Shown piece after piece: positions 396 through 38,291 of a DNA stretch of 43,003 nucleotides. A program made the position numbers and the translations under genes. Source of the DNA: an archaeon (GTDB lineage Archaea; Iainarchaeota; Iainarchaeia; CSSED10-239); the NCBI GenBank assembly GCA_029563035.1, contig JAKQTP010000246.1, forward strand, positions 1-43,003, given 5' to 3'. The stretch's first letter is position 1. The number at the start of each line of letters is the position of its first letter. Below the pieces are notes generated by a model. The model was not told where the DNA came from, made no database searches, and worked only from the letters and a program-made list of their open reading frames with translations.

Positions 396-397
396 AA

Positions 398-1271: not shown

Positions 1272-1334
1272 TTTTTCATATAAAATGTTTAATTTATAAA
1301 ATGTACGAAAAAATATATGAAAAACAAAATTATT

Positions 1335-2213: not shown

Positions 2214-2222
2214 TATTAACTA

Positions 2223-3234: not shown

Positions 3235-3260
3235 AATCTATCTTTTTTATTTTATTTGTA

Positions 3261-4670: not shown

Positions 4671-4672
4671 CT

Positions 4673-5368: not shown

Positions 5369-5390
5369 GTATTTAAATGTTAATTTTTTT

Positions 5391-5687: not shown

Positions 5688-5764
5688 CTAATTCATTATT
5701 TATTAAAATATAGACAATTTTTGGTTAATATCAAAGTTTTGAATAAAAAAACGTAATTATTTAT

Positions 5765-5773
5765 ATATTTATG
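5765..5773 (+). promoter_or_regulatory. ATATTTAT(A/G) motif before the OmpA-like gene
   Basis: ATATTTATG, ending 4 nt before the start codon at 5778, in a region of overlapping TATTTATA repeats. Confidence 0.4.
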
Positions 5774-5777
5774 ATAT

Positions 5778-6926: not shown

Positions 6927-6928
6927 AT

Positions 6929-7714: not shown

Positions 7715-7774
7715 TGCGTTTAAAATTTTAATTAGTAAAGATAACGTATTTTTTTTGATATTTCCAAATTTTTT

Positions 7775-7801
7775 TATAAAAAAAGGGGACTACTCCCCTT
7801 T
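7775..7801 (-). terminator. Intrinsic terminator after the zinc-ribbon gene
   Basis: Stem AAGGGGA / TCCCCTT with a four-base loop, followed on the minus strand by a run of T. It closes the unit ending at 7827. Confidence 0.8.
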
Positions 7802-7826
7802 ATGACCTTGTGTGTTTATTTTTTTA

Positions 7827-8549: not shown

Positions 8550-8683
8550 TTCCTTATTTTTTTTATATGAACATCTATTTGTTGGTATCAATTCCAACTC
8601 AAATGTCGTTTTACCGGCACTAGATCCTCAATCACAAGGTCATTAATAAATATAAATAAAATAAAAAAGTAAGTAAATGTTAA

Positions 8684-9160
8684 TTAAAAATTTTGAACAT
8701 TAATTTCAATATTTTTGACAATAATATTTCCGTTATTATCGTTAGTTAAATTAATTTCAATGTCAGAATCAACACCAAAATATCCCAAATCATCGGTTTC
8801 GTTAGTTATGACTTGTGAGTTCCAATCAATCGGTATTGTTATGTTTTCTTCAATAAAATCACCATCAGGATCATTTGCGGGATAATAACTTATTTCAAGT
8901 TCAATATGTGACGGGCCTTTAATGTTGGTCACATAAATGCCTTTTATGCCATATTTTCTCCATTCAATATCTACAATATAAGATAACTCAAAATTTATTT
9001 TAGAAATATCGGCAATTTCACCACCTTTAAATGTTGTTCCAATATAACCAAAATCGCCAGTCGCATAAACAAGATTTGTTCTATCATTAATTGTTTGTTC
9101 TTTAATGATGTTATCCATTAATGTTTTAGTTTGACTTTCGGTTAGAATTACTTTTTTCAT
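8684..9160 (-). CDS. Tagged hypothetical protein
   Basis: 158 residues. Opens with MKKVILTESQTKTLMDN, then IIKEQ at residues 18-22, the clearest copy of the shared peptide with its possible cleavage point after Glu. The rest is acidic and beta-rich (IDIEWRKYG, IELEISYYPANDPDGDF), perhaps a small beta-sandwich. It overlaps the upstream gene by 4 nt and is last in the unit that starts at 11490. Confidence 0.75.
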   Translation of the reverse strand: MKKVILTESQTKTLMDNIIKEQTINDRTNLVYATGDFGYIGTTFKGGEIADISKINFELSYIVDIEWRKYGIKGIYVTNIKGPSHIELEISYYPANDPDGDFIEENITIPIDWNSQVITNETDDLGYFGVDSDIEINLTNDNNGNIIVKNIEINVQNF

Positions 9161-10869: not shown

Positions 10870-10881
10870 AACAACTATATT

Positions 10882-11199
10882 TTAAATTCCCGTCCCGTAT
10901 TTACGACGACATTTTTTCCATATTTTATTCTCTTCAGGTGTTAATGTGCTCTGAGTATTATATCCCCAAATTCCATCCGCCACAATATTAGCCCCTTTTT
11001 TCTTTTTTTCTTGCTGGAAAAGAATCAATGCTCTTGTTGTGTCCTTATCCATTTGACCGTTAATTTTTAAATTGGCTCGTGAAATTTGGTTTAAAAAACA
11101 TTGAACAGTAGCCGCTAGAGAAGCATCTTCTGTTTGTTCTTGGATGATTGAATCCACAACCATTTTCACTTGTTTCTCAGTTAAAATATATTTTTTCAT
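10882..11199 (-). CDS. Tagged peptidoglycan-binding protein
   Basis: 105 residues. The tag is MKKYILTEKQVKMVVDS followed by IIQEQ. The remainder is one PG_binding_1 domain: VQCFLNQI, INGQMDKDTTRALILFQQ and VADGIWGYNTQSTL, the helical repeat that holds peptidoglycan in hydrolases. No catalytic domain is attached, so it may be a targeting or structural subunit. Lies 12 nt after the upstream tagged gene in the same unit. Confidence 0.85.
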   Translation of the reverse strand: MKKYILTEKQVKMVVDSIIQEQTEDASLAATVQCFLNQISRANLKINGQMDKDTTRALILFQQEKKKKGANIVADGIWGYNTQSTLTPEENKIWKKCRRKYGTGI

Positions 11200-11211
11200 T
11201 TTTATTTTTTT

Positions 11212-11490
11212 TTATCTTAAATTAAAAACATATCTTCCTTTACCGACATCTTTAATATCTATACCAGTACTTTCTTTAAATGTTTTTATTATTGCTTCAT
11301 CACCACCATGACGATATAAATCTTTAAGTATATCGAATAATGTTATTTCATCAAGGCCGGTCCTGCTAAGTATTTCAGCAAGTCCCTCTAAATTATAGAC
11401 TTCCTGATTTTCTAGTAAAACATCGTTACATTCAATTATGTTGTTTACCAGTGTTTTTACCTGTGATTCCGTAAAAATATACTTTTTCAT
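11212..11490 (-). CDS. Tagged small hypothetical protein, first of its unit
   Basis: 92 residues. Starts MKKYIFTESQVKTLVNN, with IIE and LLENQ within the next 15 residues, so it is a variant of the shared tag. The rest is a short helical domain (LAEILSRTGLDEITLFDIL). It is the promoter-proximal gene of four consecutive minus-strand tagged genes (11490 to 8684). Confidence 0.75.
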   Translation of the reverse strand: MKKYIFTESQVKTLVNNIIECNDVLLENQEVYNLEGLAEILSRTGLDEITLFDILKDLYRHGGDEAIIKTFKESTGIDIKDVGKGRYVFNLR

Positions 11491-11495
11491 ATAAT

Positions 11496-11505
11496 GATAA
11501 ATATT
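11496..11505 (-). promoter_or_regulatory. ATATTTATC motif before the four-gene tagged unit
   Basis: AATATTTATC on the minus strand, 5 nt before the start codon at 11490. Confidence 0.4.
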
Positions 11506-11534
11506 AAATAATTTGGATTTGTAATAGTTACAAT

Positions 11535-11807
11535 ATGTTTAATTTTATTTATATTTATTCAAAAAACGAAATGTTACACACATTACGAGGATTTGAATTA
11601 ATAACATATCAAGATAAGTTGTATTATGTTTTTCGAAAAGTGAATAAAAATTCAATTAAAGATGGTCATATTAATGACATTAAAGAATTTTGGCGTTGTG
11701 ATATTGTTCTTAAAAAAAGAAATAATGAAGATGATATGCTATTGTTTCTAGTTGAAATTCCAGATGCTATTATTATTGAAGATCGGGAGAAAACTGAGAC
11801 TATTTAG
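11535..11807 (+). CDS. Hypothetical protein
   Basis: 90 residues, aromatic-rich N-terminus (MFNFIYIYSKNEML) and a basic centre with FWRCDIVLKKRNNED. No family recognised. Divergent from 11490 with 44 nt between them, and its 3' end overlaps the convergent gene by 8 nt. Confidence 0.65.
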   Translation: MFNFIYIYSKNEMLHTLRGFELITYQDKLYYVFRKVNKNSIKDGHINDIKEFWRCDIVLKKRNNEDDMLLFLVEIPDAIIIEDREKTETI

Positions 11808-12153
11808 TTTCTTTTTTTCTAATAGTTTTTTTCGGATTTTTTTCTTGGGTCGATAAATTATTTATTACATCAAAATTTTTTAAAACATCATTTAGTATTG
11901 CTGCAAATTCATAATTTTCGTTTTCTTCATTTTTTTTGCGAAATAATGTTATAACTTGATTTAATTCAGCATCACTTAATTTGGAAATTACTTTTGTTCG
12001 ATTTTTTATTAAACTTAAAACTGTAAATAGAACAGCCAATTTTTTTTCGTTGGTTAATGTAAAATATTCGTTAATGTTTATTGCTGATAATATGTGATTT
12101 GTTGTGGATGTTAAAAATGACATAAAAGACGGATGGTTAACATTAATTTTCAT
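11800..12153 (-). CDS. Hypothetical helical protein
   Basis: 117 residues, predicted mostly helical: FTLTNEKKLAVLFTVLSLIKN, then a polar helix and a basic tail (KKTIRKKETK). No motif recognised. It overlaps the convergent gene's 3' end by 8 nt. Confidence 0.65.
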   Translation of the reverse strand: MKINVNHPSFMSFLTSTTNHILSAININEYFTLTNEKKLAVLFTVLSLIKNRTKVISKLSDAELNQVITLFRKKNEENENYEFAAILNDVLKNFDVINNLSTQEKNPKKTIRKKETK

Positions 12154-12166
12154 AACGAAACTTTTT

Positions 12167-12175
12167 TATAAATAT
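12167..12175 (-). promoter_or_regulatory. ATATTTATA motif
   Basis: Exact copy on the minus strand, 13 nt before the start at 12153. Confidence 0.4.
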
Positions 12176-12205
12176 TTTTATGAACATATTGGAGACAAAT
12201 ATAAT

Positions 12206-12235
12206 TAAAAAAAGGAGAAATCAAATGTTTTCCCC
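12206..12235 (-). terminator. Intrinsic terminator after the DUF1599 gene
   Basis: Stem GGGGAAA / TTTCTCC with one G-T pair and an eight-base loop, followed on the minus strand by seven T. Confidence 0.65.
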
Positions 12236-12261
12236 TCTTTTTTTTTATGAAAATAGTAAAA

Positions 12262-12609
12262 CTATCGTCCCCATTTTTTTCTCTGAACAATCTGGGCAAT
12301 AATCCCATATACACTTAAATCCTGAAAAGTATCACCAATAGTTTCTCCAACATGATCTTGTCTACCAAGAACGACTAATTGCTTAATTCTTTGAATTTTA
12401 TCATTCATTCTGAAAAACAATCCTGTTAAAGATAATTTTACATCATCATCTGTGGTTAACAATGTTCCTACTGAAATATTTGATGGACCATAATTAAGTT
12501 GTTTGCGACAGAACAAATCGTATTGGTCCCACATAATAGATTTAATTTCTTGAGTCATTTCTGGGTAAATCTTTTCACATTCTTTTACTGCTGACGATTT
12601 TTCTTCCAT
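12262..12609 (-). CDS. DUF1599 / nucleotide-modification-associated domain protein
   Basis: 115 residues. YDLFCRKQLNYGPSNIS, LTGLFFRMNDKIQRI and VGETIGDTFQDLSVYGII followed by KKWGR are the conserved blocks of DUF1599 (Nmad1), a small phage and bacterial family. Comparative work links the family to hypermodified DNA bases; its biochemical role is not established. Here it lies near GMP reductase and in the same window as Dam, a carbamoyltransferase and glycosyltransferases, which fits that link but does not prove it. Confidence 0.85.
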   Translation of the reverse strand: MEEKSSAVKECEKIYPEMTQEIKSIMWDQYDLFCRKQLNYGPSNISVGTLLTTDDDVKLSLTGLFFRMNDKIQRIKQLVVLGRQDHVGETIGDTFQDLSVYGIIAQIVQRKKWGR

Positions 12610-12664
12610 AATTTGATTTTTTTATATTAAAATAAAATATATTGGAAAAAAACAACAAAACCAA

Positions 12665-12673
12665 ATATTTATA
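12665..12673 (+). promoter_or_regulatory. ATATTTATA motif before the RHH gene
   Basis: Exact copy, 14 nt before the start at 12688. This is one of few copies in front of a non-tagged gene. Confidence 0.4.
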
Positions 12674-12687
12674 AAAAAACTATTCAT

Positions 12688-12927
12688 ATGGCATCAGAAA
12701 AATCAAAAACAAAAGAAGCCCATCCAGGGAAATCAGAACAGCCAAAATATAGACAGTTGGTTAGAATGTTATCATTCAGAATCGTTCCAATGTATTATAA
12801 AAAAATTGAAAAAGTTGCTAATAGTCAGAAAACAACCGTTTCTGCTCTTATTAGAAGATATATTAAAGAAGGTATGATGAAAGATCTGGAATTAAGAGGA
12901 GATGATCCCGATTTCAGAATTGAATAG
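12688..12927 (+). CDS. Ribbon-helix-helix DNA-binding protein
   Basis: 79 residues. After a basic, flexible 27-residue start, LSFRIVPMYYKKIEKVAN and TTVSALIRRYIKEGM form the beta-strand, helix, helix pattern of Arc/MetJ-type regulators, which bind DNA as dimers. The acidic tail (ELRGDDPDFRIE) is short. A phage transcription regulator is likely; no toxin partner is adjacent. It ends immediately before the stop of the convergent GMP reductase gene. Confidence 0.75.
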   Translation: MASEKSKTKEAHPGKSEQPKYRQLVRMLSFRIVPMYYKKIEKVANSQKTTVSALIRRYIKEGMMKDLELRGDDPDFRIE

Positions 12928-14001
12928 TTATTTATCGAATCTGCGTCTTGCAGCGTCGGTAATAAAAACATATTGAGCGTATCCAATAAAATCGCTCAAT
13001 TTTTTTGCACCCGAATAACTCATAGCAGATCTAAGATAATCTTTAAAGTTTTCTGTCCATTGTTCTAGAGAGTTTTCAACTTTTTGATATTTTGTAATAC
13101 CTTCAGCAGTTACCAGTTGTGTTTTTCCCCAACTTCTTTGAACAGCTTTTGTACTCATACCACGGTATTTCTTTTTAATTGGAAACCCCCATTTCCATAA
13201 TACTTCGGATAGTTTATTATGTATTTTTACACCCCACAAATAATTATAACCCGCAGATTCGATTGTTTTATTAAAAATTGAACCTATCATAACATAATCC
13301 GCGCCTAGGGCTAGGGCTTTAATGACGTCAGAATAATTCTTCATGCCACCATCAGCAACAATTTTTGTTTTTAATTTATATTCTTTTTGTAACTGTCGGC
13401 ATTCAGCAATTAATGAACCCATAGGATAATTGATTGAAACATTTGCGGCTGTTGTACATCCGGCGCCCGTGCCAATTGAACATCTAACATAATCTGCCCC
13501 AGCTCGTGCTAAATTCACATATGTTTTAGGATTTGCTACATTACCAACCATTAATTGAATATTTGGCCAAAATTTTTTAATATCTTTAATGATATCAAGT
13601 AATTTTTTCATATGGCCATTTGCTATATCAATTAAAACATGTTGGTGATTATAAAAGCAAGATTTATATGGTAACATCGCTTCACATCGGTAATCATCTA
13701 GTTGTTTTTCTATTTCATATAAACCAAATGACTGAAAATATGGCTTTTTCCCATAACCGACAATATGTTGTAAAGGTAATATATGTTGTCCTCTTGGTAA
13801 ACATGGTATTATACCATTATCAATAAATTTTTGATAGTTATTTTTGGAAACAACAGTATCCATTGGTGCAGCCATTAATGGTAACATCTGATAATTATAA
13901 TCCCATTTTTGTGTTATTTTACATTCTTTTCTACTATTAATATCACTACTTTCTGTTGGTATTATAACAATATCATTTAAATCGAATTTCATGTCATCCA
14001 T
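12928..14001 (-). CDS. guaC: GMP reductase / IMP dehydrogenase family enzyme
   Basis: 357 residues without the CBS insert of IMP dehydrogenase, which favours GMP reductase (GMP + NADPH to IMP + ammonia). Blocks: FDLNDIVIIPT, PLMAAPMDTVV, the catalytic loop CSIGTGAGCTT (Cys at about residue 185), KIVADGGMKNYSDVIKALALGADYVMIGS and KKYRGMSTKA. The loop differs slightly from the usual GMP reductase form, so an IMPDH-like activity remains possible. In a phage this redirects purine pools. A TATATTTG box lies about 20 nt upstream (14023-14030) but without a clear TTTG partner. Confidence 0.88.
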   Translation of the reverse strand: MDDMKFDLNDIVIIPTESSDINSRKECKITQKWDYNYQMLPLMAAPMDTVVSKNNYQKFIDNGIIPCLPRGQHILPLQHIVGYGKKPYFQSFGLYEIEKQLDDYRCEAMLPYKSCFYNHQHVLIDIANGHMKKLLDIIKDIKKFWPNIQLMVGNVANPKTYVNLARAGADYVRCSIGTGAGCTTAANVSINYPMGSLIAECRQLQKEYKLKTKIVADGGMKNYSDVIKALALGADYVMIGSIFNKTIESAGYNYLWGVKIHNKLSEVLWKWGFPIKKKYRGMSTKAVQRSWGKTQLVTAEGITKYQKVENSLEQWTENFKDYLRSAMSYSGAKKLSDFIGYAQYVFITDAARRRFDK

Positions 14002-27683: not shown

Positions 27684-27688
27684 ATTAG

Positions 27689-28101
27689 TGGAGGTGAGCG
27701 GGTTCGAACCGCTGTCTTGCTCGCCAAACCATACTTGGACTACATGCTTATTTGATTATTCATAATCAACAAATATCAGATTCCTATTTTACCATTGTTA
27801 TCTGCAACTCTGGGAAGTTCACTTTTGTTAAAGTAGAACCTCAAACGAGACTTTCGATACACTTAGCGGGCAGTATCGGCCTTTGTTGGAACTTCTGTTG
27901 CTAGGTTATATGTTCATCGACCCCTCGTAGCGCTTCGTCTGAGACTAGGCGGCCACATTGGATGTTGCGAGTAAACCCGCTACTTCCATGTTTTTATAAA
28001 TGTTGCCATTTATCATTTACCATCGTAGTTTTAAGTCATAGATGATATTAGACCACATGCCCAAATACCATTTAAACGCCAATCAATACCTGGTCACCCC
28101 C
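27689..28101 (-). ncRNA. ssrA: tmRNA (transfer-messenger RNA)
   Basis: 413 nt. The 5' end GGGGGTG pairs with the 3' CACCTCC (one G-U), next to a T-arm AGCGG-TTCGAAC-CCGCT and discriminator A; CCA is not encoded. Between the ends lies a long insert with a frame that ends in -VAA and TAG at 27945. The most plausible tag starts at GCG 27980, after AGTA (the usual bases before the resume codon), and reads AGLLATSNVAA; an in-frame longer tag from 28007 cannot be excluded. tmRNA plus SmpB rescues stalled ribosomes and marks the product for proteolysis. It has its own host-type promoter and terminator. tmRNA in phages is known but uncommon. Confidence 0.92.
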
Positions 28102-30478: not shown

Positions 30479-31912
30479 ATGACTCAGGAAGAAAAAATAC
30501 TAGATCTTGTAAAAAGAACAATCAAAGGTACTGAATGGGAAAATAAAATTTATCTCGTTGGCGGAGCCGTTCGTGATCAAGTTATGGTTGGTGTTGTTGA
30601 TGATCTGGATTTCGTTGTTGAAGGTAACATTACTTCAGGAGTCGACTTTGCTGAATGGCTATGTAAAAAATGGAATGTATTTAAACCCAATAGTAATCCC
30701 GTCATTTTTCCAAAATATGGAACGGCAAATATGCATTATAATGACATTAAATTAGAATTTGTTGCTCCACGAAAAGAAAAATATACTGAAGGATCTAGAA
30801 AACCTGTTGTTTCGGATGGCGTTTTAATGGATGACGCAATGCGAAGAGATCTTACGATCAATTCATTGATGAGGAATATAAGTACTAACCAAATAGTAGA
30901 TCTCACGGGAAAAGGAATGTATGACATCAAAAACGGGATAATTCGAACCCCTTCAGATCCAGAAATCATATTTAAAGACGATCCATTACGAATGCTAAGA
31001 GCAATCAGATTTACCGTTAAATATGGATTTAAAATGTCCCAAGAAACAATGGATGGAATAACTATGCACGCTAATTTAATTAATAGTGGAGCAGTTTCAC
31101 AAGAAAGAATTGGTACTGAACTAAGTAAAATACTTTTATCCAAAGATCCTGTTATGGGAATTGAACTGATGCAAAAAACGGGCTTATTAAAAATAATAAT
31201 CCCAGAACTTGATCAAATGGTAGGACTTGGACAAAACAAATACCATAGTGAGGATGCGTATCACCATACTCTATCGGTATTGAAAAATACTCCACCTAAA
31301 TTGGAAACTCGATTAATGGCATTACTTCATGATATTGGAAAAGCGGCAACAAAATCTACGGCAGAAGGTGATGAAGTTCATTTCTATGGTCATGAAAATG
31401 TTGGCGAGAAAATTGCAATTGATATTTTGAGAAGATTAAAATACCCGAATGAACTGATAAATGCTGTTGCTTTGGGTGTTAAGACACATATGAGTTTAAA
31501 ACATGGTCTTGATGATGCAGCGAAAATTAGTGATAAAACGTTGAGAAAGTTTTCAGTTTCAACTGGGGAACATCTTAATGATATACTGGATCTTATTCAT
31601 GCCGATAATGTTTCGCATTCTGATGTTGCGTCAATGCCTAATCAAATTAAATATGTTAAACAAAGAATTGATAATTTAAAAACACCCAAAACTCAAACTG
31701 ACGTAAAATTACCATTGGATGGGAATGATATAAAACAGATTCTCGGCATTAAAGATGGACCGATGGTAGGCAAAGTAAAAACTGCAGTTGAAGATGCTTG
31801 GTATGAAAATCCCAATCTCACAAGGGATGAAGCAATTGAAATCGTTAAACAATTCAAAATTGAAAACGAAATCAACGAAATAAAACGAATAATGAAAGCA
31901 ATAATAAATTAA
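30479..31912 (+). CDS. cca: CCA tRNA nucleotidyltransferase with HD domain
   Basis: 477 residues. YLVGGAVRDQVM and DDLDFVVEG are the class II nucleotidyltransferase head with the catalytic Asp pair, RRDLTINSLM and DPLRMLRAIRFTVKYGF are the conserved neck, and LLHDIGKAATKS at about residue 280 with HENVG is an HD phosphohydrolase domain. It adds or repairs the 3' CCA of tRNA. Nearly all tRNA genes in this window lack an encoded CCA, so the phage tRNAs need this activity. Followed by a strong terminator. Confidence 0.95.
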   Translation: MTQEEKILDLVKRTIKGTEWENKIYLVGGAVRDQVMVGVVDDLDFVVEGNITSGVDFAEWLCKKWNVFKPNSNPVIFPKYGTANMHYNDIKLEFVAPRKEKYTEGSRKPVVSDGVLMDDAMRRDLTINSLMRNISTNQIVDLTGKGMYDIKNGIIRTPSDPEIIFKDDPLRMLRAIRFTVKYGFKMSQETMDGITMHANLINSGAVSQERIGTELSKILLSKDPVMGIELMQKTGLLKIIIPELDQMVGLGQNKYHSEDAYHHTLSVLKNTPPKLETRLMALLHDIGKAATKSTAEGDEVHFYGHENVGEKIAIDILRRLKYPNELINAVALGVKTHMSLKHGLDDAAKISDKTLRKFSVSTGEHLNDILDLIHADNVSHSDVASMPNQIKYVKQRIDNLKTPKTQTDVKLPLDGNDIKQILGIKDGPMVGKVKTAVEDAWYENPNLTRDEAIEIVKQFKIENEINEIKRIMKAIIN

Positions 31913-33232: not shown

Positions 33233-33958
33233 CTATTTCTTTTCGGGTTCTTTACGGAATGACCACTTGTCAAATCCATGCTGAGCTATCTTATACTTGT
33301 CATCAACATTAACAATGTCTTTTTCTTTGTTTCCAAGCACACCACTCAAAAACATCTGAATTTCCTGAAATGCCTGAAACGCATTAAACACTTTGAAGAA
33401 TTGGTATTCCTTCAATAATGGATTAATGAAAAATTTGGGATTGTTATGATAATTCTTTTCTCTGTAATACCTTCCGTAATCACTATCATAAACAAACACA
33501 GGCGTATTAAGCTCACGAAAAATGTCCATTGCATCATATGATAAGACATAATTGAGGCTGTCTTCAAGATTTCCTCCCCACCAGCTGAACTGTTCAACTA
33601 TTTTCTTTATGTTGTCATTATTATAATCAATTGTGGTAATTAATTCATCACCGACATATGGTTTTTTTTCTCCTACACTATAGAATTTCCAACCAACATA
33701 TATTTTACCACAGAATCCAATAATAAACGGAGCCACATGTTCATAAACAACTTTGAGCTCTTTTTTGACACTCACATTGGATAATCTATAAAACGGACTT
33801 GGCTTGGTATTATTTAATGCATGATATCTTCGAAATATCTTTGGATATTTTTCTTCATCTAATTCGATGATATCTCGATTATAAACAATGGTCTTGTCGA
33901 TACCCGTAGTACCAGCAACGCCATCATAATAATCTTTCCGTTTCGAAATTATATACAT
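33233..33958 (-). CDS. Hypothetical protein
   Basis: 241 residues. The N-terminal 110 residues look beta-rich (YHALNNTKPSPFYRLSN, FIIGFCGKIYVGWKFY), the middle has SWWGGNLEDSLNYVLSYDAM, and PVFVYDSDYGRYYREKNYH follows. Cytoplasmic, no transmembrane segment. No family recognised. Begins 26 nt after the end of the tRNA-Leu(UAA) gene. Confidence 0.7.
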   Translation of the reverse strand: MYIISKRKDYYDGVAGTTGIDKTIVYNRDIIELDEEKYPKIFRRYHALNNTKPSPFYRLSNVSVKKELKVVYEHVAPFIIGFCGKIYVGWKFYSVGEKKPYVGDELITTIDYNNDNIKKIVEQFSWWGGNLEDSLNYVLSYDAMDIFRELNTPVFVYDSDYGRYYREKNYHNNPKFFINPLLKEYQFFKVFNAFQAFQEIQMFLSGVLGNKEKDIVNVDDKYKIAQHGFDKWSFRKEPEKK

Positions 33959-33984
33959 ATCAAAATTTTAAGTTGAAAAAATTG

Positions 33985-34272
33985 TGCCCAGAATGGGAGT
34001 CGAACCCACACGGCCTTCACAGGCCACAGGATTTTCTTACCACTATAGTTTTCACTACCAATTAATTGTTTGTGGTCTGGACTATACCTTTACCATATCA
34101 TCATTGACTTAGGTATTCCGTGTCTAGTCTCTACACCTTCCTCACACCAAGGCTTGGCTCGGTATTCCCATTTTAAAGGGTTCACCGAATTTACGGAATT
34201 CTACATCTCTCTTTTCAGAAAGAGCACTCCAAACATAAAGTCCTGCATGTCTACCAATTCCATCATCTGGGC
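33985..34272 (-). tRNA. tRNA-Leu(UAA), interrupted by a group I intron
   Basis: 5' exon 34238-34272 (acceptor GCCCAGA, T8 G9, D-arm, anticodon 5' strand CAGGA, then C T T) and 3' exon 33985-34035 (AAAA, TCCTG, long variable arm GGCC/GGCC, T-arm GTGGG-TTCGACT-CCCAT, TCTGGGC, discriminator A). Joined, they give an 86-nt leucine tRNA with anticodon TAA and a normal seven-base loop. The break falls between anticodon bases 34 and 35. CCA is not encoded. It is the last gene of array 1, separated from Gln(UUG) by a small protein gene. Confidence 0.92.
34036..34237 (-). ncRNA. Group I intron, IC3-like, 202 nt, in tRNA-Leu(UAA)
   Basis: Core elements on the minus strand: P3 ATTCCGT / ACGGAAT, P4 TCGGT / ACCGA with P5 CCC / GGG, GAGCCAAGCC, then GAAGGTGTAGAGACTAGAC (P7 5' side) and AAAGGTATAGTCC (P7 3' side), a P9 hairpin TAGT-GAAA-ACTA with a GNRA loop, and a final G before the 3' exon. 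P1 can form between exon ACTT and intron GAGT with a U-G pair at the splice site. A P2 hairpin CTCTTT / AAAGAG follows it. No homing endonuclease frame is present. Self-splicing is expected from the family. Confidence 0.92.
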
Positions 34273-34292
34273 AAAAATATCTTCAAAGAACA

Positions 34293-34538
34293 TTATTCGT
34301 CATCGTCCGATCCGGCATCAACTCTATCGTCGTCTTTTAACTTTCCAAAAGTTAAAGTGTTTTTTAGATACCGTTCTTTTGTCTGCTCAGCTGTCTCATT
34401 ATATCTTGTGAAAACAGTTATACGAAGCTCGGGTATGTAAACCATCTTCCGATCCAACGTACATTCCTTGGATATTTTTAATAACCTTGGACTGAGCTTG
34501 TCCCGTTCACCCACTTCCGAATAAAACTTTTGTGCCAT
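34293..34538 (-). CDS. Small hypothetical protein inside the tRNA array
   Basis: 81 residues, MAQKFYSEVGERDKLSPRLL at the start, a central basic helix (EQTKERYLKNTL) and a very acidic end (DDDRVDAGSDDDE). It has its own promoter and sits 20 nt before the intron-bearing tRNA. Function unknown. Confidence 0.65.
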   Translation of the reverse strand: MAQKFYSEVGERDKLSPRLLKISKECTLDRKMVYIPELRITVFTRYNETAEQTKERYLKNTLTFGKLKDDDRVDAGSDDDE

Positions 34539-34564
34539 TTTCCATAATCATAATTTAACAAAAA

Positions 34565-34596
34565 CAAAGATATGTATAATTTTTGAATTTACCAAA
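34565..34596 (-). promoter_or_regulatory. Bacteroidetes-type promoter of the small gene and tRNA-Leu(UAA)
   Basis: Minus strand TTTG, 20 nt, TATCTTTG, between tRNA-Gln(UUG) and the 81-residue gene. It may give tRNA-Leu(UAA) transcription independent of the array 1 leader. Confidence 0.7.
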
Positions 34597-34606
34597 TTTA
34601 TTTTTG

Positions 34607-34679
34607 TTGCCCTCCCAGGAATCGAACCTGGACAGACCAAGATCCAAAGTCTTGCGCGCTACCGTTACGCTAGAGGGCA
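34607..34679 (-). tRNA. tRNA-Gln(UUG)
   Basis: 73 nt. Acceptor TGCCCTC / GAGGGCA, anticodon arm CAAGA-CTTTGGA-TCTTG with anticodon TTG, T-arm with TTCGATT. CCA not encoded. Confidence 0.95.
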
Positions 34680-34689
34680 ATATTTTTTG

Positions 34690-34762
34690 TTGTCTTAGAG
34701 AGGATCGAACTCCCAGTTTCTTGATCCAGAGTCAAGCGTGTTACCAATTACACCATAAGACA
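34690..34762 (-). tRNA. tRNA-Gln(CUG)
   Basis: 73 nt. Acceptor TGTCTTA / TAAGACA, anticodon arm CTTGA-CTCTGGA-TCAAG with anticodon CTG, T-loop TTCGATC. CCA not encoded. Confidence 0.95.
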
Positions 34763-34765
34763 ATT

Positions 34766-34843
34766 TGGGGTGTCTGACGAGACTCGAACCCGCAACAACC
34801 AGAACCACAATCTGGGACTCTAACCATTTGAGCTACAGACACC
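34766..34843 (-). tRNA. tRNA-His(GUG)
   Basis: Acceptor GTGTCTG / CAGACAC with an encoded G-1 opposite C73, the His identity feature. Anticodon arm CCAGA-TTGTGGT-TCTGG with anticodon GTG. The only tRNA here followed by an encoded CCA (34766-34768), which may be chance. Confidence 0.95.
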
Positions 34844-34967
34844 ATATTCTTTATAATACAAAAATTAATAACAACCACAATATCAAAGAACCAATTAAAC
34901 TTTTAGTCAATCTCAATAAAAGATTGTGCAGTGATCACTTCGTGCAAGTAGTTTAATATCAACCACC

Positions 34968-35041
34968 TTGGGGTGCCGGAGCTCGAATCCGGAACCTCTA
35001 AATCCCAAATTTAGTAATCTAACCAATTGATATACACCCCA
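34968..35041 (-). tRNA. tRNA-Pro(UGG)
   Basis: 74 nt. Acceptor TGGGGTG / CACCCCA, anticodon arm CTAAA-TTTGGGA-TTTAG with anticodon TGG, T-arm CCGGATTCGAGCTCCGG. CCA not encoded. Gaps of 71 and 124 nt on either side hold no gene I can support; the one before it contains TGTTCTTTTTA, boxA-like. Confidence 0.95.
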
Positions 35042-35112
35042 CTATAAAAAGAACAATATTATCGTCTTTTTTATCGATAATTTCATTTTATCGTATAAAT
35101 CCACGATAATTG

Positions 35113-35186
35113 TACGCCTGGAGGGACTCGAACCCCCACTCTCCACATCCGTAGTGTGATATGTTATCCAATTACACCACAAGCGT
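35113..35186 (-). tRNA. tRNA-Arg(ACG)
   Basis: 74 nt. Acceptor ACGCTTG / CAGGCGT, T8, D-stem GTGT / ACAC, anticodon arm TCACA-CTACGGA-TGTGG with anticodon ACG. A34 normally needs deamination to inosine by host TadA. CCA not encoded. Confidence 0.93.
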
Positions 35187-35192
35187 ATTTTG

Positions 35193-35268
35193 TACCCCCG
35201 GAGGGACTCGAACCCCTGCATTCTTCTGATCCGAAGTCAGATGTGTTATCCAATTACACCACGGAGGT
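35193..35268 (-). tRNA. tRNA-Arg(UCG), first tRNA of array 1
   Basis: 76 nt. Acceptor ACCTCCG / CGGGGGT, anticodon arm TCTGA-CTTCGGA-TCAGA with anticodon TCG; one A-C mismatch at the base of the T-stem. The 5' end lies 7 nt after the T-run of the leader terminator. CCA not encoded. Confidence 0.93.
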
Positions 35269-35275
35269 ATTCAAA

Positions 35276-35308
35276 AAACAAAAAGCCCCACTCACTTTTG
35301 AATGGGGC
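35276..35308 (-). terminator. Terminator between leader 1 and tRNA array 1 (attenuator stem 3:4)
   Basis: Ten-pair stem GCCCCATTCA / TGAGTGGGGC with loop AAAG, followed by TTTTTG and TTTTTT. Its 5' arm and flank, ACGGCCCCATTCA (35299-35311), can instead pair with TGAATGGGGTCGT inside the leader frame (35353-35365), all 13 positions with one G-U. Confidence 0.88.
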
Positions 35309-35343
35309 CGTCCTTTAATAATAACCAAAAACTAACAAAAAGT

Positions 35344-35412
35344 TTAAGCATAACGACCCCATTCAACCTGTGGTTGTAAATGACGGGGCTGTTGTGTCAT
35401 TAAACTTTTCAT
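35344..35412 (-). CDS. Leader peptide of tRNA array 1 (22 residues)
   Basis: The ATG at 35412 opens 22 codons ending in TAA. Residues 7-15 are QQPRHLQPQ, and over the whole frame there are four Gln (CAA twice, CAG twice), two Pro, two Arg (both CGT), one His and two Leu (both TTA). The array behind it encodes exactly tRNA-Arg, Pro, His, Gln(CUG and UUG) and Leu(UAA). The segment at codons 16-20 can pair with the terminator's 5' arm; an earlier segment, ACAGCCCC (35385-35392), can pair with that segment, and CAACC-ACA-GGTTG makes a local hairpin between them. It starts about 25 nt after a host-type promoter. I infer a sensor peptide, not a functional protein. Confidence 0.75.
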   Translation of the reverse strand: MKSLMTQQPRHLQPQVEWGRYA

Positions 35413-35437
35413 TGTGAAACTAAAATTAAATCCAGTA

Positions 35438-35469
35438 CAAATATAAATATTCTTTTTTTAAAAAACAAA
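35438..35469 (-). promoter_or_regulatory. Bacteroidetes-type promoter of leader 1
   Basis: Minus strand CAAAAACATTTG, 20 nt, TATATTTGTA. The flanks closely match the leader 2 promoter (CAAAAACATTTG and AAGAATA are shared). Confidence 0.88.
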
Positions 35470-35510
35470 TGTTTTTGAGAAAAAATTATTTTTTTTTACA
35501 TTTCTATTAT

Positions 35511-35891
35511 TTATTCGGGTTCTATATTCGATTCTGGGTATTCCCATTCTAATTGATCAAAATGCAAATCAATATATTCATTAATTTTTTCTTTTAATTC
35601 TTCTTCATTAAAACTTTTAAAATTACCATCATCAAAAATCTCAGAAAAATAAATTGTTGCAGTACCACCAAGTGTTCCGTAAACAATAACTTTCTTTTCG
35701 TCATCAAAAATATTATTTTGTTCACCTTTTTCAACATCTACAATATTCCAGTGATCAAGTTCTTCGTCATCATACCAAGGTGGATTTTCGGTAAAATGAG
35801 GATCATCATCCCTAACATTATCGGGTAGATAGCTTGTATTTTTCATGATTTCAAGAATCCTTTCTTTTTCTTCATTCAATGTTCTTTTCAT
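35511..35891 (-). CDS. Tagged acidic hypothetical protein (LNEEK family)
   Basis: 126 residues. MKRTLNEEKERILEIMKN is the second type of shared N-terminal peptide. The rest is strongly acidic (ENPPWYDDEELDHWN, FNEEELKEKINEYIDLHFD) with a short beta segment (KKVIVYGTLGGTATIYFSE). No known domain. A candidate virion or scaffold-associated protein. Confidence 0.72.
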   Translation of the reverse strand: MKRTLNEEKERILEIMKNTSYLPDNVRDDDPHFTENPPWYDDEELDHWNIVDVEKGEQNNIFDDEKKVIVYGTLGGTATIYFSEIFDDGNFKSFNEEELKEKINEYIDLHFDQLEWEYPESNIEPE

Positions 35892-35906
35892 AATGGTATA
35901 TTTTTT

Positions 35907-35915
35907 TATAAATAT
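35907..35915 (-). promoter_or_regulatory. ATATTTATA motif
   Basis: Exact copy on the minus strand, 15 nt before the start at 35891. Confidence 0.4.
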
Positions 35916-35991
35916 TTGATTTAGTGGAAAAAATTCTCCATTTATATATTAGATATTGTTTTTATTGGAAAATTTTCGTTTTTTGGTTTTA

Positions 35992-36000
35992 ATATTTATA
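35992..36000 (+). promoter_or_regulatory. ATATTTATA motif before the membrane M23 gene
   Basis: Exact copy, 5 nt before the start at 36006; the divergent copy is at 35907. Confidence 0.4.
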
Positions 36001-36005
36001 ATATT

Positions 36006-36899
36006 ATGAAACTACCTTTTTATAAATTTGACAAAATTGACTTACAATATAAGAAAATTAATATAACTTATAAAACAATTATTAAGTTTGTTTTAACACA
36101 GGTTATTATAACAATAGGATTAATTTTCTTACTTTCTTTATTATTTAATACACCGAAAGAGTCGAAATTAAAAGACCAAATCGGTAAATTAGAATATGAT
36201 CTGTATGTTATTGACAAAAAAGCCGATGGGGTTTATTATTACTTACAAACATTACAACAAAAAGATAGTATTATTTTACATAAATACGATAATCCCGAAG
36301 GTGATTTGACGGTAATCACACCCAAAACAGTTGGTGATAAACTAGATGCTATTTATAAAACCATACAATATAATAGTGAACGATTAAAAGATGTTATAGA
36401 AAAAATAACTGCTGATGATAAAAGATTGAGACATTATCCCGCCATACAACCAATATCAAAAAAAGATTTGGAAAGAATATCGTCTGGTTTCAGTATGAGA
36501 ATACATCCAATATATAGAATCAACAAATTTCATTATGGAATGGACTTTGTAGCTCCGGTTGGAACTGCAGTATATGCCACGGCCGATGGTGTAGTCACAA
36601 TGGCTAGTGAATATCTTGGATATGGAAACTACATCAAAATTGATCACGGATACGAATATGAAACGGCTTATGGTCATTTAAATAGTATTGGTGTACGTAA
36701 AGGTCAAAAAGTAGTAAGAGGACAAGTAATTGGGACTGTTGGAAATACTGGAATATCAACCGGTGACCATCTTCATTATGAAGTTATACATCGAGGAAAA
36801 GCAGTTAATCCAATTAATTATTTTGCTCAAGATATAACTGCTGATGAATATATATTAATGCTTAAAGTTCAAGAAACATTAAGAGTGGCGTTGGATTAA
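36006..36899 (+). CDS. Membrane-anchored M23 peptidase
   Basis: 297 residues. One membrane segment at about residues 25-46 (ITIGLIFLLSLLF), then a helical stalk, then an M23 domain at about 155-280: GFSMRIHPIYRINKFHYGMD gives the first ligands, AYGHLNSIGV and GDHLHYEVIHRG the His ligands. All four zinc-binding positions appear intact. M23 enzymes cut peptide cross-bridges in peptidoglycan. With the catalytic domain outside the membrane it resembles the host cell-division or MepM type, and could act in lysis. It has no shared tag. Confidence 0.9.
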   Translation: MKLPFYKFDKIDLQYKKINITYKTIIKFVLTQVIITIGLIFLLSLLFNTPKESKLKDQIGKLEYDLYVIDKKADGVYYYLQTLQQKDSIILHKYDNPEGDLTVITPKTVGDKLDAIYKTIQYNSERLKDVIEKITADDKRLRHYPAIQPISKKDLERISSGFSMRIHPIYRINKFHYGMDFVAPVGTAVYATADGVVTMASEYLGYGNYIKIDHGYEYETAYGHLNSIGVRKGQKVVRGQVIGTVGNTGISTGDHLHYEVIHRGKAVNPINYFAQDITADEYILMLKVQETLRVALD

Positions 36900-36917
36900 A
36901 TTATAAAATAAATTTAG

Positions 36918-36987
36918 CGTAGGTGCAACTCGAATCCTGATCCGATGGGTTGGAGCCACCAATGTTAACCAATTACACCACACCTAC
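36918..36987 (-). tRNA. tRNA-Trp(CCA) with shortened T-stem
   Basis: Acceptor GTAGGTG / CACCTAC with discriminator G, D-stem GTGT / ACAT, anticodon arm GGTGG-CTCCAAC-CCATC with anticodon CCA. The T-arm reads CAGGA-TTCGAGT-TG: the 3' strand of the stem lacks three bases, so only two positions can pair. Total 70 nt. Either a defective gene, an unusual tRNA, or an assembly error. Confidence 0.75.
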
Positions 36988-36994
36988 ATTTTTG

Positions 36995-37076
36995 TGGCTT
37001 CGGTGGGTTTCGAACCCACACGCCTTGCGACACCAGGTTTTGAATCTGACGCGTATTCCAATTCCGCCACGAAGCC
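36995..37076 (-). tRNA. tRNA-Leu(CAA)
   Basis: 82 nt, class II. Acceptor GGCTTCG / CGAAGCC, anticodon loop TTCAAAA with anticodon CAA, one A-C mismatch closing the anticodon stem, variable arm CGC-AAG-GCG. CCA not encoded. Confidence 0.9.
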
Positions 37077-37084
37077 ATCGTAAA

Positions 37085-37112
37085 TAACCCCCTTTTAGGT
37101 TGGGGGTTTTTT
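37085..37112 (+). terminator. Terminator, plus-strand polarity, between tRNA genes
   Basis: Stem AACCCCC / GGGGGTT followed by TTTTTTT on the plus strand; on the minus strand no T-run follows. It probably stops transcripts of the M23 gene that pass antisense through tRNA-Trp and tRNA-Leu(CAA). Confidence 0.75.
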
Positions 37113-37145
37113 TCAGAAGCTTTTTATTAAAGAAACTCCCATTAG

Positions 37146-37219
37146 TGGATCGTAAGGGATTCCAACCCTTGACCTCCTGTGTGCAAGACAGGCGCTCTAG
37201 GCAACTGAGCTAACAACCC
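37146..37219 (-). tRNA. tRNA-Ala(UGC)
   Basis: 74 nt. Acceptor GGGTTGT / ACGATCC with the G3-U70 pair that identifies alanine tRNA, anticodon arm CCTGT-CTTGCAC-ACAGG with anticodon TGC. The T-loop is TTGGAAT instead of TTCGAAT. CCA not encoded. Confidence 0.93.
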
Positions 37220-37226
37220 ATATTAG

Positions 37227-37307
37227 TGCGGATAAAGGGACTCGAACCCCCACGCCTTTCGGCACAACATCCTAAGTGTTGCCTGTCTACCATTCCATCA
37301 TATCCGC
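37227..37307 (-). tRNA. tRNA-Leu(UAG)
   Basis: 81 nt, class II. Acceptor GCGGATA / TATCCGC, anticodon arm CAACA-CTTAGGA-TGTTG with anticodon TAG, variable arm GCC-GAAA-GGC. CCA not encoded. Confidence 0.94.
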
Positions 37308-37312
37308 ATTTG

Positions 37313-37394
37313 TCACCTTGAAAGGACTTGAACCTTCATGCCTTACGGCACATGACCCTCAATCATGCTTGTCTACCATTTCCAACACAAGGTG
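37313..37394 (-). tRNA. tRNA-Leu(GAG)
   Basis: 82 nt, class II. Acceptor CACCTTG / CAAGGTG, anticodon arm CATGA-TTGAGGG-TCATG with anticodon GAG, variable arm TGCC-GTAA-GGCA. A third leucine isoacceptor in this array. CCA not encoded. Confidence 0.93.
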
Positions 37395-37403
37395 AATATT
37401 TTG

Positions 37404-37477
37404 TATTGCGTAGCGGGATCGAACCGCTGAATACAGGGTTGAAAGCCCTGCGTGTTAACCAACTTCACCAACGCAAC
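37404..37477 (-). tRNA. tRNA-Glu(UUC)
   Basis: 74 nt. Acceptor GTTGCGT / ACGCAAT with a G1-U72 pair, anticodon arm CAGGG-CTTTCAA-CCCTG with anticodon TTC, T-arm AGCGG-TTCGATC-CCGCT. CCA not encoded. Confidence 0.93.
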
Positions 37478-37488
37478 ATATTTTTTTG

Positions 37489-37564
37489 CGGGCTATATGG
37501 GGATCGAACCCACCTGAATTTCTCCGTGACAGGGAGACGGCCACAACCAGCAGCCCCATAGCCC
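37489..37564 (-). tRNA. tRNA-Asp(GUC), first tRNA of array 2
   Basis: 76 nt. Acceptor GGGCTAT / ATAGCCC, discriminator G as expected for Asp, anticodon arm TCTCC-CTGTCAC-GGAGA with anticodon GTC. Position 8 is G instead of the usual U. CCA not encoded. Confidence 0.92.
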
Positions 37565-37576
37565 ATATTTCCAACA

Positions 37577-37588
37577 TGTCAAAGAACA
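37577..37588 (-). promoter_or_regulatory. boxA-like element before tRNA array 2
   Basis: TGTTCTTTGACA on the minus strand, close to the rRNA antitermination boxA (TGCTCTTTAACA in E. coli), between the leader terminator and tRNA-Asp. A CGTTCTTTGA occurs in the same place before the tmRNA. Confidence 0.45.
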
Positions 37589-37599
37589 CCATTTTATAT

Positions 37600-37630
37600 A
37601 AAAAAACCCGACTGTGTGGGTAGCCGGGCT
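37600..37630 (-). terminator. Terminator between leader 2 and tRNA array 2 (attenuator stem 3:4)
   Basis: Nine-pair stem AGCCCGGCT / AGTCGGGTT (two G-U) with an eight-base loop, followed by T-run. Its 5' arm GCCCGGC (37623-37629) can instead pair with GTCGGGT at the end of the leader frame (about 37664-37670). Confidence 0.85.
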
Positions 37631-37661
37631 CTTTCATTATAAAGTATGATATTTACAGATC

Positions 37662-37745
37662 TCACCCGACAGTGCATAGTTTCTCATCGTCAGCCCATAG
37701 ATGTTCAGCCGCGAAGAGATTCAGTATGTCGAGCAATGTTTTCAT
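37662..37745 (-). CDS. Leader peptide of tRNA array 2 (27 residues)
   Basis: The ATG at 37745 opens 27 codons ending in TGA. Composition: six Leu, three Asp, three Ala, two Glu, one Trp, i.e. 15 of 27. The array behind it encodes exactly tRNA-Asp, Glu, Ala, Trp and Leu with anticodons CAA, GAG and UAG. The six Leu codons are TTG, CTC, CTG, CTC, CTA, CTA; none is TTA, although TTA dominates in this AT-rich genome. The last codons and stop (TGTCGGG, 37665-37671) can pair with CTCGACA near the start (37727-37733) or with the terminator's 5' arm. Same promoter type as leader 1. I infer an attenuation leader. Confidence 0.75.
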   Translation of the reverse strand: MKTLLDILNLFAAEHLWADDEKLCTVG

Positions 37746-37768
37746 TTCTTTATTTTTTAATTGCGATA

Positions 37769-37800
37769 CAAATATACGTATTCTTTTTATAAATACCAAA
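37769..37800 (-). promoter_or_regulatory. Bacteroidetes-type promoter of leader 2
   Basis: Minus strand CAAAAACATTTG, 20 nt, TATATTTGTA, the same arrangement and partly the same flanks as the leader 1 promoter. Confidence 0.88.
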
Positions 37801-37826
37801 TGTTTTTGAAAAAAAAAATTATTTTT

Positions 37827-38291
37827 TTAAAAATTATCTGAAATTTCAGGTTCAGTTAAATTGGACATCACGTCTTCCATGCCCTCTAAAACACCATTAA
37901 CACCTATACCGGGCATATTAACATAATCATTCACCAATTCTTCTAGTTTATATTTAAATTCTGTTAATTTATCATAATCAATTTCACCATTATCGGATTG
38001 TTCCCCCATTATATTATCACTTGATTCGTTGTCAACTGCGTTTATATTACTGTCGATTGGATCTTCCAATTCATTTCCATCGGATAATACGGTATCAAGA
38101 GCATCCATAATGAGTTTTCTAAATTCATCATCACTAAGTCCCGAAGCTATGGTATTTCTAATGTGTTTTATGTGTTCAATAGACATATTATGCATACCGC
38201 CAAGAATAGACATTCCCGGCCATGATACATCACCAATTCTTTCCATAATAGAAAGAATTCTCTTTTTTTCTTCGTTCAATGTTTTTTTCAT
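37827..38291 (-). CDS. Tagged hypothetical protein (LNEEK family)
   Basis: 154 residues. MKKTLNEEKKRILSIMERIG is nearly the same as the N-termini of the 126- and 401-residue proteins. The rest is acidic and helical (LSDDEFRKLIMDALDTVLSD; FKYKLEELVNDYVNM) with no recognised domain. Separate ATATTTATA motif upstream, so it is probably its own unit. Confidence 0.72.
   Translation of the reverse strand: MKKTLNEEKKRILSIMERIGDVSWPGMSILGGMHNMSIEHIKHIRNTIASGLSDDEFRKLIMDALDTVLSDGNELEDPIDSNINAVDNESSDNIMGEQSDNGEIDYDKLTEFKYKLEELVNDYVNMPGIGVNGVLEGMEDVMSNLTEPEISDNF

What the first reader, a model, noticed from the sequence alone, without database searches (positions are those of the whole stretch)
35276..35469. 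Leader peptide 1 matches the tRNAs of array 1 and sits in an attenuator-like fold
A host-type promoter drives a 22-codon frame, then a ten-pair intrinsic terminator, then tRNA-Arg(UCG), Arg(ACG), Pro, His, Gln(CUG), Gln(UUG) and Leu(UAA). Nine consecutive residues, QQPRHLQPQ, all belong to the five amino acids served by that array, and codons CAA, CAG, CGT, CAT, CCA and TTA are those read by its tRNAs. The frame also holds an antiterminator: TGAATGGGGTCGT (35353-35365) pairs with ACGGCCCCATTCA (35299-35311), the terminator's 5' arm, while ACAGCCCC (35385-35392) can pair with the antiterminator. This is the classical 1:2, 2:3, 3:4 scheme of amino-acid operon attenuation. If true, scarcity of charged Gln, Pro, Arg, His or Leu tRNA stalls the ribosome and lets RNA polymerase into the tRNA genes: a phage tRNA supply controlled by codon need.
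Basis: partly seen in the sequence, partly recalled or inferred. Interest (0 to 1): 0.97.

Follow-up and report, generated by a model that had tools for sequence, protein, structure and literature searches.

The report
Codon-sensing leaders control phage tRNA genes
In front of each of two tRNA gene clusters this bacterial virus carries a short reading frame enriched in the codons those tRNAs read, followed by a predicted transcription stop signal, a layout that would switch the tRNA genes on when a ribosome stalls for lack of one of those tRNAs.

Summary
Window leader 1 (35344-35412, -) lies between a Bacteroidota-type promoter and a predicted terminator ahead of Arg-Arg-Pro-His-Gln-Gln. Leader 2 (37662-37745, -) does the same for Asp-Glu-Leu-Leu-Ala-Leu-Trp. 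The window belongs to a T4-like phage: its end is identical to a contig with head, portal and terminase genes. In uncultured relatives a rule based on structure alone (frame, terminator, tRNA) gives 57 distinct leader peptides. Fifty fall into six families, each enriched for the amino acids of its own array; consistent relabelling of amino acids never reaches the match (0 of 200,000). Where isoacceptors are split between arrays, leader codons mostly follow them (Arg CGN or AGR, Ile ATY or ATA; Ser only partly). In a stalled-ribosome folding model, codons of the own array are denser before the predicted switch point in 47 of 48 units. Best reading: ribosome-mediated attenuation of tRNA genes, a known mechanism with a target not described before to my knowledge. 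Not shown: transcription, translation, readthrough, inducing signal. Leu(UAA) is probably not part of unit 1, and three lineages keep leaders whose tRNAs are mostly gone.

The parts
35438..35469 (-). Bacteroidota-type promoter-like site of unit 1, TTTG-N20-TATATTTG
   Evidence: a looser pattern (TT[T/G]-N16-23-TAnnTTTG) lies within 140 nt upstream of 47 of 50 leaders against 5% of random windows
35344..35412 (-). leader 1 frame, MKSLMTQQPRHLQPQVEWGRYA
   Evidence: 10 further distinct peptides of its family stand before Pro/Gln arrays, most with His
35385..35392 (-). arm ACAGCCCC that can sequester the antiterminator arm (1:2 pairing)
35353..35365 (-). antiterminator arm TGAATGGGGTCGT (region 2), inside the codons for VEWGR
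35284..35311 (-). predicted intrinsic terminator of unit 1; its 5' arm ACGGCCCCATTCA (35299-35311) is region 3
35192..35268 (-). tRNA-Arg(UCG)
35112..35186 (-). tRNA-Arg(ACG)
34968..35041 (-). tRNA-Pro(UGG)
34766..34842 (-). tRNA-His(GUG)
34689..34762 (-). tRNA-Gln(CUG)
34606..34679 (-). tRNA-Gln(UUG)
33984..34272 (-). tRNA-Leu(UAA) with group I intron; probably a separate transcription unit
   Evidence: RF00028 at 34055-34247; promoter-like site starting 324 nt upstream
37769..37800 (-). Bacteroidota-type promoter-like site of unit 2
37662..37745 (-). leader 2 frame, MKTLLDILNLFAAEHLWADDEKLCTVG
   Evidence: 16 of 16 viral-contig hits of a pattern for this frame type stand before tRNAs
37604..37637 (-). 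predicted intrinsic terminator of unit 2
37488..37564 (-). tRNA-Asp(GUC)
37403..37477 (-). tRNA-Glu(UUC)
37312..37394 (-). tRNA-Leu(GAG)
37226..37307 (-). tRNA-Leu(UAG)
37145..37219 (-). tRNA-Ala(UGC)
36994..37076 (-). tRNA-Leu(CAA)
36918..36987 (-). tRNA, read by eye as Trp(CCA)
   Evidence: Infernal 34.8 bits; missed by ARAGORN; anticodon read from the sequence

Best explanation
Leader 1 and its tRNA array likely form a ribosome-sensed transcription attenuator: a short frame rich in the array's own codons is followed by a predicted terminator, and a ribosome that stalls there for want of a charged cognate tRNA would let RNA polymerase read through into the tRNA genes. Shown in sequence: promoter-like site, frame, hairpin with U-run, array; the match between leader codons and array tRNAs, and its change across relatives; the mutually exclusive antiterminator and terminator pairings. 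Computed: a ribosome held at the matched codons leaves region 2 free to capture the terminator's 5' arm, while a ribosome that reaches the stop codon covers region 2 and the terminator forms. Inferred: the frame is translated; scarcity of any one of the array's charged tRNAs (an OR gate) raises transcription; once the tRNAs are plentiful, termination returns, which closes a feedback loop. The window holds two such units. Sequenced relatives hold up to four, which together serve nearly all amino acids.
For: Units found by structure alone: 66 in 43 loci, 57 distinct peptides, 50 in six families. Amino-acid match: observed 3.394 against 1.973 (sd 0.193) under consistent relabelling, 0 of 200,000 as high; the true pairing ranks first of 24 in the four-leader clade. 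Codon level: A leaders Arg CGN 18:AGR 1, Ile ATY 22:ATA 2, Ser TCN 25:AGY 0 with Arg(ACG), Ile(GAU), Ser(UGA); B leaders AGR 7:CGN 1, ATA 11:ATY 0, AGY 10:TCN 9 with Arg(UCU), Ile(UAU), Ser(GCU); background CGN 204:AGR 720. Residues served by the unit's own array: 0.66 before the computed switch, 0.35 after, higher before in 47 of 48 units; with the family's consensus array 0.74 and 0.39, 48 of 48; residues of the clade's other arrays 0.10 before and 0.24 after; similar with other footprints. Antiterminator helix better than shuffles in 48 of 57 units, 47 of the 50 in families; covariation in the Asp-led family. Content shifts: L207 has Val in array and leader; L223 has Gln in array A and Q in leader A, none in array or leader B. 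pN/pS 0.14-0.41 in four families. Specificity: 16 of 16 viral hits of a leader pattern precede tRNAs; 0 of 8 genome-collection hits lead a tRNA array; the rule gives 0 units at 30 tRNAs of bacterial contigs and at 27 tRNAs in the fetched regions of two distant phages.
Against: No expression data. The units are related by descent: in effect six leader families in two clades. Three lineages keep a leader whose matching tRNAs are mostly absent: L254/L261 (Asp and Arg only), L259/L244 (no Val or Ala), and L197-L201, five records with one and the same B leader but only Leu, Arg, Met and Gly. Leader A of L205 has a Gln codon although Gln lies in array B there. B leaders carry nearly as many TCN as AGY codons (9:10). 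In 5 of 6 B units a promoter-like site lies between terminator and first tRNA and could bypass control. The antiterminator of window leader 2 is weak (7 pairs, p 0.16): sequestration of the terminator's 5' arm at its matched codons is mostly 0.6-0.7, hardly different from the state without a ribosome (0.67). At full equilibrium the terminator wins at all stall positions in several units, so the switch there rests on co-transcriptional folding. The RNA without a ribosome is not clearly 'off': mean antiterminator 0.74; matched stalls exceed it in 36 of 50 units. Two of 50 units show no usable switch. pN/pS is 0.83 in the Asp-led family (2 pairs only).
Confidence: 0.87

Rival explanations
1. Same anatomy, other signal: the attenuator responds to amino-acid shortage or to general slowing of translation, and tRNA level is not what is sensed.
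For: Classical leaders sense amino-acid supply through charging (recalled), and any slow ribosome would trigger the switch: in most units printed the model is 'on' for a stall at nearly any codon before the switch.
Against: Amino-acid shortage is not cured by making tRNA. Arg and Ile codons follow the isoacceptors present in the array and not just the amino acid, and leaders differ by array within one phage, which a global sensor would not need.
Confidence: 0.1
2. The frames encode functional small proteins, and the resemblance of their composition to the arrays is incidental.
For: The frames are conserved, and four of five families tested show purifying selection.
Against: Six peptide families show the same composition rule (0 of 200,000 relabellings); matched residues are concentrated before the switch; codons near the C-terminus coincide with the antiterminator arm in most units.
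Confidence: 0.02
3. The hairpins are processing or stability elements of the tRNA precursor, and leader translation affects processing, not transcription termination.
For: tRNA precursors are processed from long transcripts (recalled); 5 of 50 units have a second promoter-like site downstream of the hairpin.
Against: The hairpins end in U-runs of terminator type (required by the rule), and most leaders carry a competing arm against the 5' half of the hairpin.
Confidence: 0.04

Closest known systems
Amino-acid operon attenuators of trp/his/ilv type (ribosome-mediated attenuation; recalled textbook knowledge)
   Same: Promoter, short control-codon frame, overlapping 1:2, 2:3 and 3:4 pairings, intrinsic terminator before the genes; several amino acids in one leader as in ilv
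   Different: The genes behind the terminator are tRNAs, not biosynthetic enzymes; leaders cover up to about 14 amino acids and partly follow isoacceptors; several leaders in one genome share out the amino acids; the carrier is a phage
Aminoacyl-tRNA synthetase attenuator pheST (recalled)
   Same: A translation-machinery gene set controlled by its own amino acid's codons
   Different: One amino acid and a protein product
T-box riboswitches
   Same: Sense tRNA charging to control termination (recalled)
   Different: T-boxes bind uncharged tRNA directly (recalled); no T-box match in the window at Rfam gathering scores or in 33800-38000 at E up to 1
Phage tRNAs as counter-defence against tRNA cleavage (PMC10264068, start of abstract and two passages seen; PMC11555353, start of abstract seen)
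   Same: Phage-encoded tRNAs could replace lost host tRNAs
   Different: A search of the main text of PMC10264068 for 'leader' and 'promoter' found neither; here supply looks conditional
Freshwater Bacteroidetes phages with bS21 (PMC9723584, passages seen)
   Same: Complete genomes of 293-331 kbp, GC 31.0-33.7%, 5-25 tRNA genes, inferred by the authors to be myoviruses; kinship to the window's phage (GC 30.9%) not tested
   Different: The passages seen do not mention leaders before tRNA genes

Membership tests
Ribosome-mediated transcription attenuator | Promoter upstream of a short leader frame | tested here: met
   Promoter pattern upstream of 47 of 50 leaders, random windows 5%; pattern only
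Ribosome-mediated transcription attenuator | Control codons in the leader match the product of the operon | tested here: met
   exceptions L254/L261, L259/L244, L197-L201
Ribosome-mediated transcription attenuator | Intrinsic terminator between leader and genes | tested here: met
   By pattern: for the window; it is required by the rule, so it is not independent evidence there
Ribosome-mediated transcription attenuator | Antiterminator that excludes the terminator | tested here: met
   47 of 50 family units at p <= 0.05 against shuffles; for leader 1; covariation; not met at that level in window leader 2 (p 0.16)
Ribosome-mediated transcription attenuator | 1:2 hairpin that keeps the gene off without a ribosome | tested here: inconclusive
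   Present in the folds of window leaders 1 and 2; over 50 units the state without a ribosome is mixed
Ribosome-mediated transcription attenuator | Leader is translated | tested here: inconclusive
   pN/pS 0.14-0.41 in four of five families tested, 0.83 in the fifth with 2 pairs; no ribosome profiling
Ribosome-mediated transcription attenuator | Readthrough rises when the cognate charged tRNA is scarce | not testable with these tools
   Needs an experiment
Amino-acid biosynthetic operon | Genes behind the terminator encode biosynthetic enzymes | tested here: not met
   They are tRNA genes
T-box riboswitch | Match to the T-box family | tested here: not met

The most novel reading that the evidence does not exclude
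These phages run a genome-wide tRNA homeostat: up to four leaders together watch codons of nearly all amino acids, each leader is an OR gate for its own array, and loss of any single tRNA, for instance by a host anticodon nuclease, switches on the array that replaces it.
Probability: 0.4. Interest if true: 0.97.

Novelty: new variant of a known kind. Interest (0 to 1): 0.93.

Why it matters
[quoted passage not shown] A leader states in its codons which shortages the phage answers to, so codon compensation and defence evasion become testable gene by gene. It would also be the first case known to me of ribosome-mediated attenuation of tRNA genes, and a natural multi-input sensor of tRNA supply. 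Eight full-text searches aimed at leaders, attenuation or phage tRNAs listed no paper that, by title or start of abstract, describes leader control of phage tRNA genes: five listed nothing, one search listed 20, one search listed 1, and one search showed 12 of 35. Most subscription papers are not in that library and no bioRxiv collection is held.

Tried and rejected
Close relatives of the 126-aa and poly(A)-polymerase neighbours in viral contigs: none. A strict QQPRHLQPQ codon pattern: 0 hits; later seen to be too strict, because most homologues read QPQPQQHP or the like. The M23 neighbour gave one relative, L240. Rfam gives no leader family, only sub-threshold matches. Named phages: two leader regions found 644 and 14 records, none covering 80% of the query; the listed matches with annotation are mostly tRNAs, but only 20 of the 644 were listed. 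Two named distant relatives have tRNAs but no unit in the regions fetched. The idea that the window is cellular was considered (6,306 relatives of the poly(A) polymerase) and rejected because the window's last 438 bases equal the end of a contig with head, portal and terminase genes.

How the counts were made: the rule was run on 43 tRNA-bearing loci that I chose, leaving out most that repeat the same record; L198-L201 were left out and checked later (the same leader as L197). Rows dropped: 9 repeated peptides (66 to 57). Seven peptides fell outside the families: six do not look like leaders (among them the ends of a longer frame at L192 and L194) and one (L205 MKNLNNI...) is B-like but missed by the label rule. 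Family labels were set by peptide patterns that I wrote after seeing the leaders, not by array content. The rule missed L207, B leaders of L191, L195 and L204, leader A of L205 (GTG start) and the Asp-led leaders of L248 and L256, so these are not in the counts. Arrays at the ends of contigs or of fetched pieces are incomplete (for example L245 and L249), which lowers the own-array match.

Full report
What is in the window. On the minus strand, from 35469 to 34606, lie a promoter-like TTTG-N20-TATATTTG, a 22-codon frame (MKSLMTQQPRHLQPQVEWGRYA, 35412-35344), an 11-pair terminator-like hairpin (35309-35284) and tRNAs Arg(UCG), Arg(ACG), Pro(UGG), His(GUG), Gln(CUG), Gln(UUG). The leader RNA is unusually stable (z -4.9). 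When the stretch from 35375 onward is folded alone, as if a ribosome held the control codons, the antiterminator forms; from 35345 onward, as after the stop codon, the terminator forms. A second unit lies upstream: promoter-like site 37800-37769, leader 2 (MKTLLDILNLFAAEHLWADDEKLCTVG, 37745-37662), hairpin 37637-37604, then Asp, Glu, Leu(GAG), Leu(UAG), Ala, Leu(CAA) and a tRNA that I read as Trp(CCA). Five of the six Leu codons of leader 2 are CTN and none is TTA; its array has no Leu(UAA).

Whose genome. The last 438 bases of the window are identical to the end of contig C35 of genome G001. C35 carries a major head protein, a portal protein and a terminase (PHROGs); the portal is of the T4-like family (PF07230; one relative is named 'T4-like portal protein'). 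G001, shown as 1 Mb and 99% complete, looks like a bacterial bin with phage contigs mixed in: its contig C15 matches most of window 1-12246 and C1 matches 12515-14000, as far as the query went.

Relatives have the same layout. tRNAs were found in 19 of 23 long records reached through the portal. A pattern made from the window's leader 2 and L207's leader hit 16 stretches of viral contigs, and all 16 are short frames ahead of tRNAs; some come from the same or near-identical phages (L225 is L207's record; L231 and L239, and L224 and L237, share a leader). The same pattern in the genome collection (257 billion bases) hit 8 stretches, none of them a short frame leading a tRNA array. Fuller regions show up to four units in one phage (G026 and G029): Pro/His/Gln; Asp/Glu/Val/Leu/Ala/Trp; Tyr/Lys; and Cys/Asn/Ile/Ser/Phe/Gly/Thr/Arg. 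Another group of relatives has two larger units, A (Ala, Phe, Lys, Val, Trp, Arg(ACG), Cys, His, Ile(GAU), Met, Thr, Asp, Ser(UGA), Glu) and B (Leu, Arg(UCU), Pro, Asn, Tyr, Ile(UAU), Met, Gly, Gln, Ser(GCU)), with leaders such as MIRSTHTMSFTICSKWAEVADICMSRGVL and MMNLVYIQQPLNNPLSGNGRGIYLCDPSSELVKL.

Statistics. A rule that uses only a frame of 15-45 codons, a terminator-like hairpin 5-60 nt after it and a tRNA within 750 nt gave 66 units in the 43 loci given, 57 distinct peptides. Fifty fall into six families by peptide pattern; 7 do not. Relabelling the amino acids consistently in all leaders, which keeps relatedness, never reached the observed match (0 of 200,000; within each clade 0 of 50,000). 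The matched pairing beats the 23 other pairings of the four-leader clade, and A/B matched is 1.594 against 0.986 swapped. Codon boxes for Arg and Ile follow the isoacceptors in A against B; Ser does so in A, while B leaders carry 10 AGY and 9 TCN codons. The Fisher values are descriptive, because the leaders are related. Val in the leader core agrees with Val in the array in 9 of 11 Asp-led units; the two that disagree have Val codons and no Val tRNA.

Mechanism test. For each of the 50 units and every codon, the RNA ahead of a ribosome with that codon in the A site was folded up to the start of the terminator's 3' arm. In most units antitermination drops at one codon; two units have no usable drop. 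Residues served by the unit's own array make up 0.66 of the leader before the drop and 0.35 after, higher before in 47 of 48. With the family's consensus array the figures are 0.74 and 0.39, 48 of 48, while residues of the clade's other arrays make up 0.10 before and 0.24 after (higher before in 21 of 116). Footprints of 10 and 16 nt give 46 of 46 and 48 of 48 with the consensus array. The leader arm pairs with the terminator's 5' arm better than shuffles in 47 of the 50 family units (48 of all 57), with different sequences in different families, and within the Asp-led family the arms covary (50 of 80 cells of the flank paired against 39.0, sd 3.0; 2 of 10,000 as high; relatedness not removed). 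The promoter pattern precedes 47 of 50 leaders. Purifying selection on the frame is seen in four of five families tested.

What does not fit. L254/L261, L259/L244 and L197-L201 keep leaders for tRNAs that they mostly lack; Infernal adds no missing Val or Ala (two extra tRNA-like hits in L259 read by eye as Glu and Trp). Leader A of L205 has a Gln codon although Gln is in array B. B arrays have a promoter-like site after the terminator in 5 of 6 units. Window leader 2 has a weak antiterminator, and a stall hardly raises it above the state without a ribosome. That state is mixed over all units. L208 and L209 have tRNAs and no unit; L192 and L194 give only frames outside the families; the fetched regions of two distant named phages give none.

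Reading. Ribosome-mediated attenuation is the known mechanism that fits these parts. The gene set behind it, tRNA genes whose anticodons read the leader's own codons, is what is new to me. Because the product is tRNA and not amino acid, the loop makes most sense as a sensor of tRNA supply during infection, for instance when host tRNAs are cut by anticodon nucleases, a defence that phage tRNAs have been proposed to evade (PMC10264068, start of abstract and passages; PMC11555353, start of abstract). That last step is inference.

Noticed in passing
window 33984-34272 (-): tRNA-Leu(UAA) is interrupted by a group I intron (Rfam RF00028 at 34055-34247, 50.2 bits against a gathering score of 50).
   Followed up: partly
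window 27686-28101 (-): The phage encodes a tmRNA; relatives L259 and L261 do too.
   Followed up: no
between terminator and first tRNA, e.g. window 37577-37586 (-): A motif TTCTTTGANA, mostly TTCTTTGACA, like boxA of rRNA operons (recalled), lies between terminator and first tRNA in 26 of 50 units; 44 of 79 occurrences are within 250 nt upstream of a tRNA. It may support processive antitermination of the arrays.
   Followed up: partly
L193, L212, L216, L218, L223: Promoter-like site between terminator and first tRNA of the B arrays, 5 of 6 B units and 0 of 44 others: a possible constitutive bypass.
   Followed up: partly
L191 4796-4870 (-), L193 13387-13459 (+), L243 (17413-17485 on the reversed strand); L224 5142-5249 (-), L244, L257: tRNAs with anticodon CUA (ARAGORN 'Pyl') and UCA ('SeC') in relatives: possible stop-codon suppressor tRNAs.
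   Followed up: no
window 35511-35891 and 37827-38291 (-): Two proteins sharing the start MK(R/K)TLNEEK(E/K)RIL sit directly upstream of leaders 1 and 2.
   Followed up: no
window 30479-31912 (+): A poly(A) polymerase / tRNA nucleotidyltransferase-like protein that could add CCA ends to the phage tRNAs.
   Followed up: partly
genome G001, contigs C1, C15, C35: A bacterial bin shown as 1 Mb holds contigs of this phage.
   Followed up: yes
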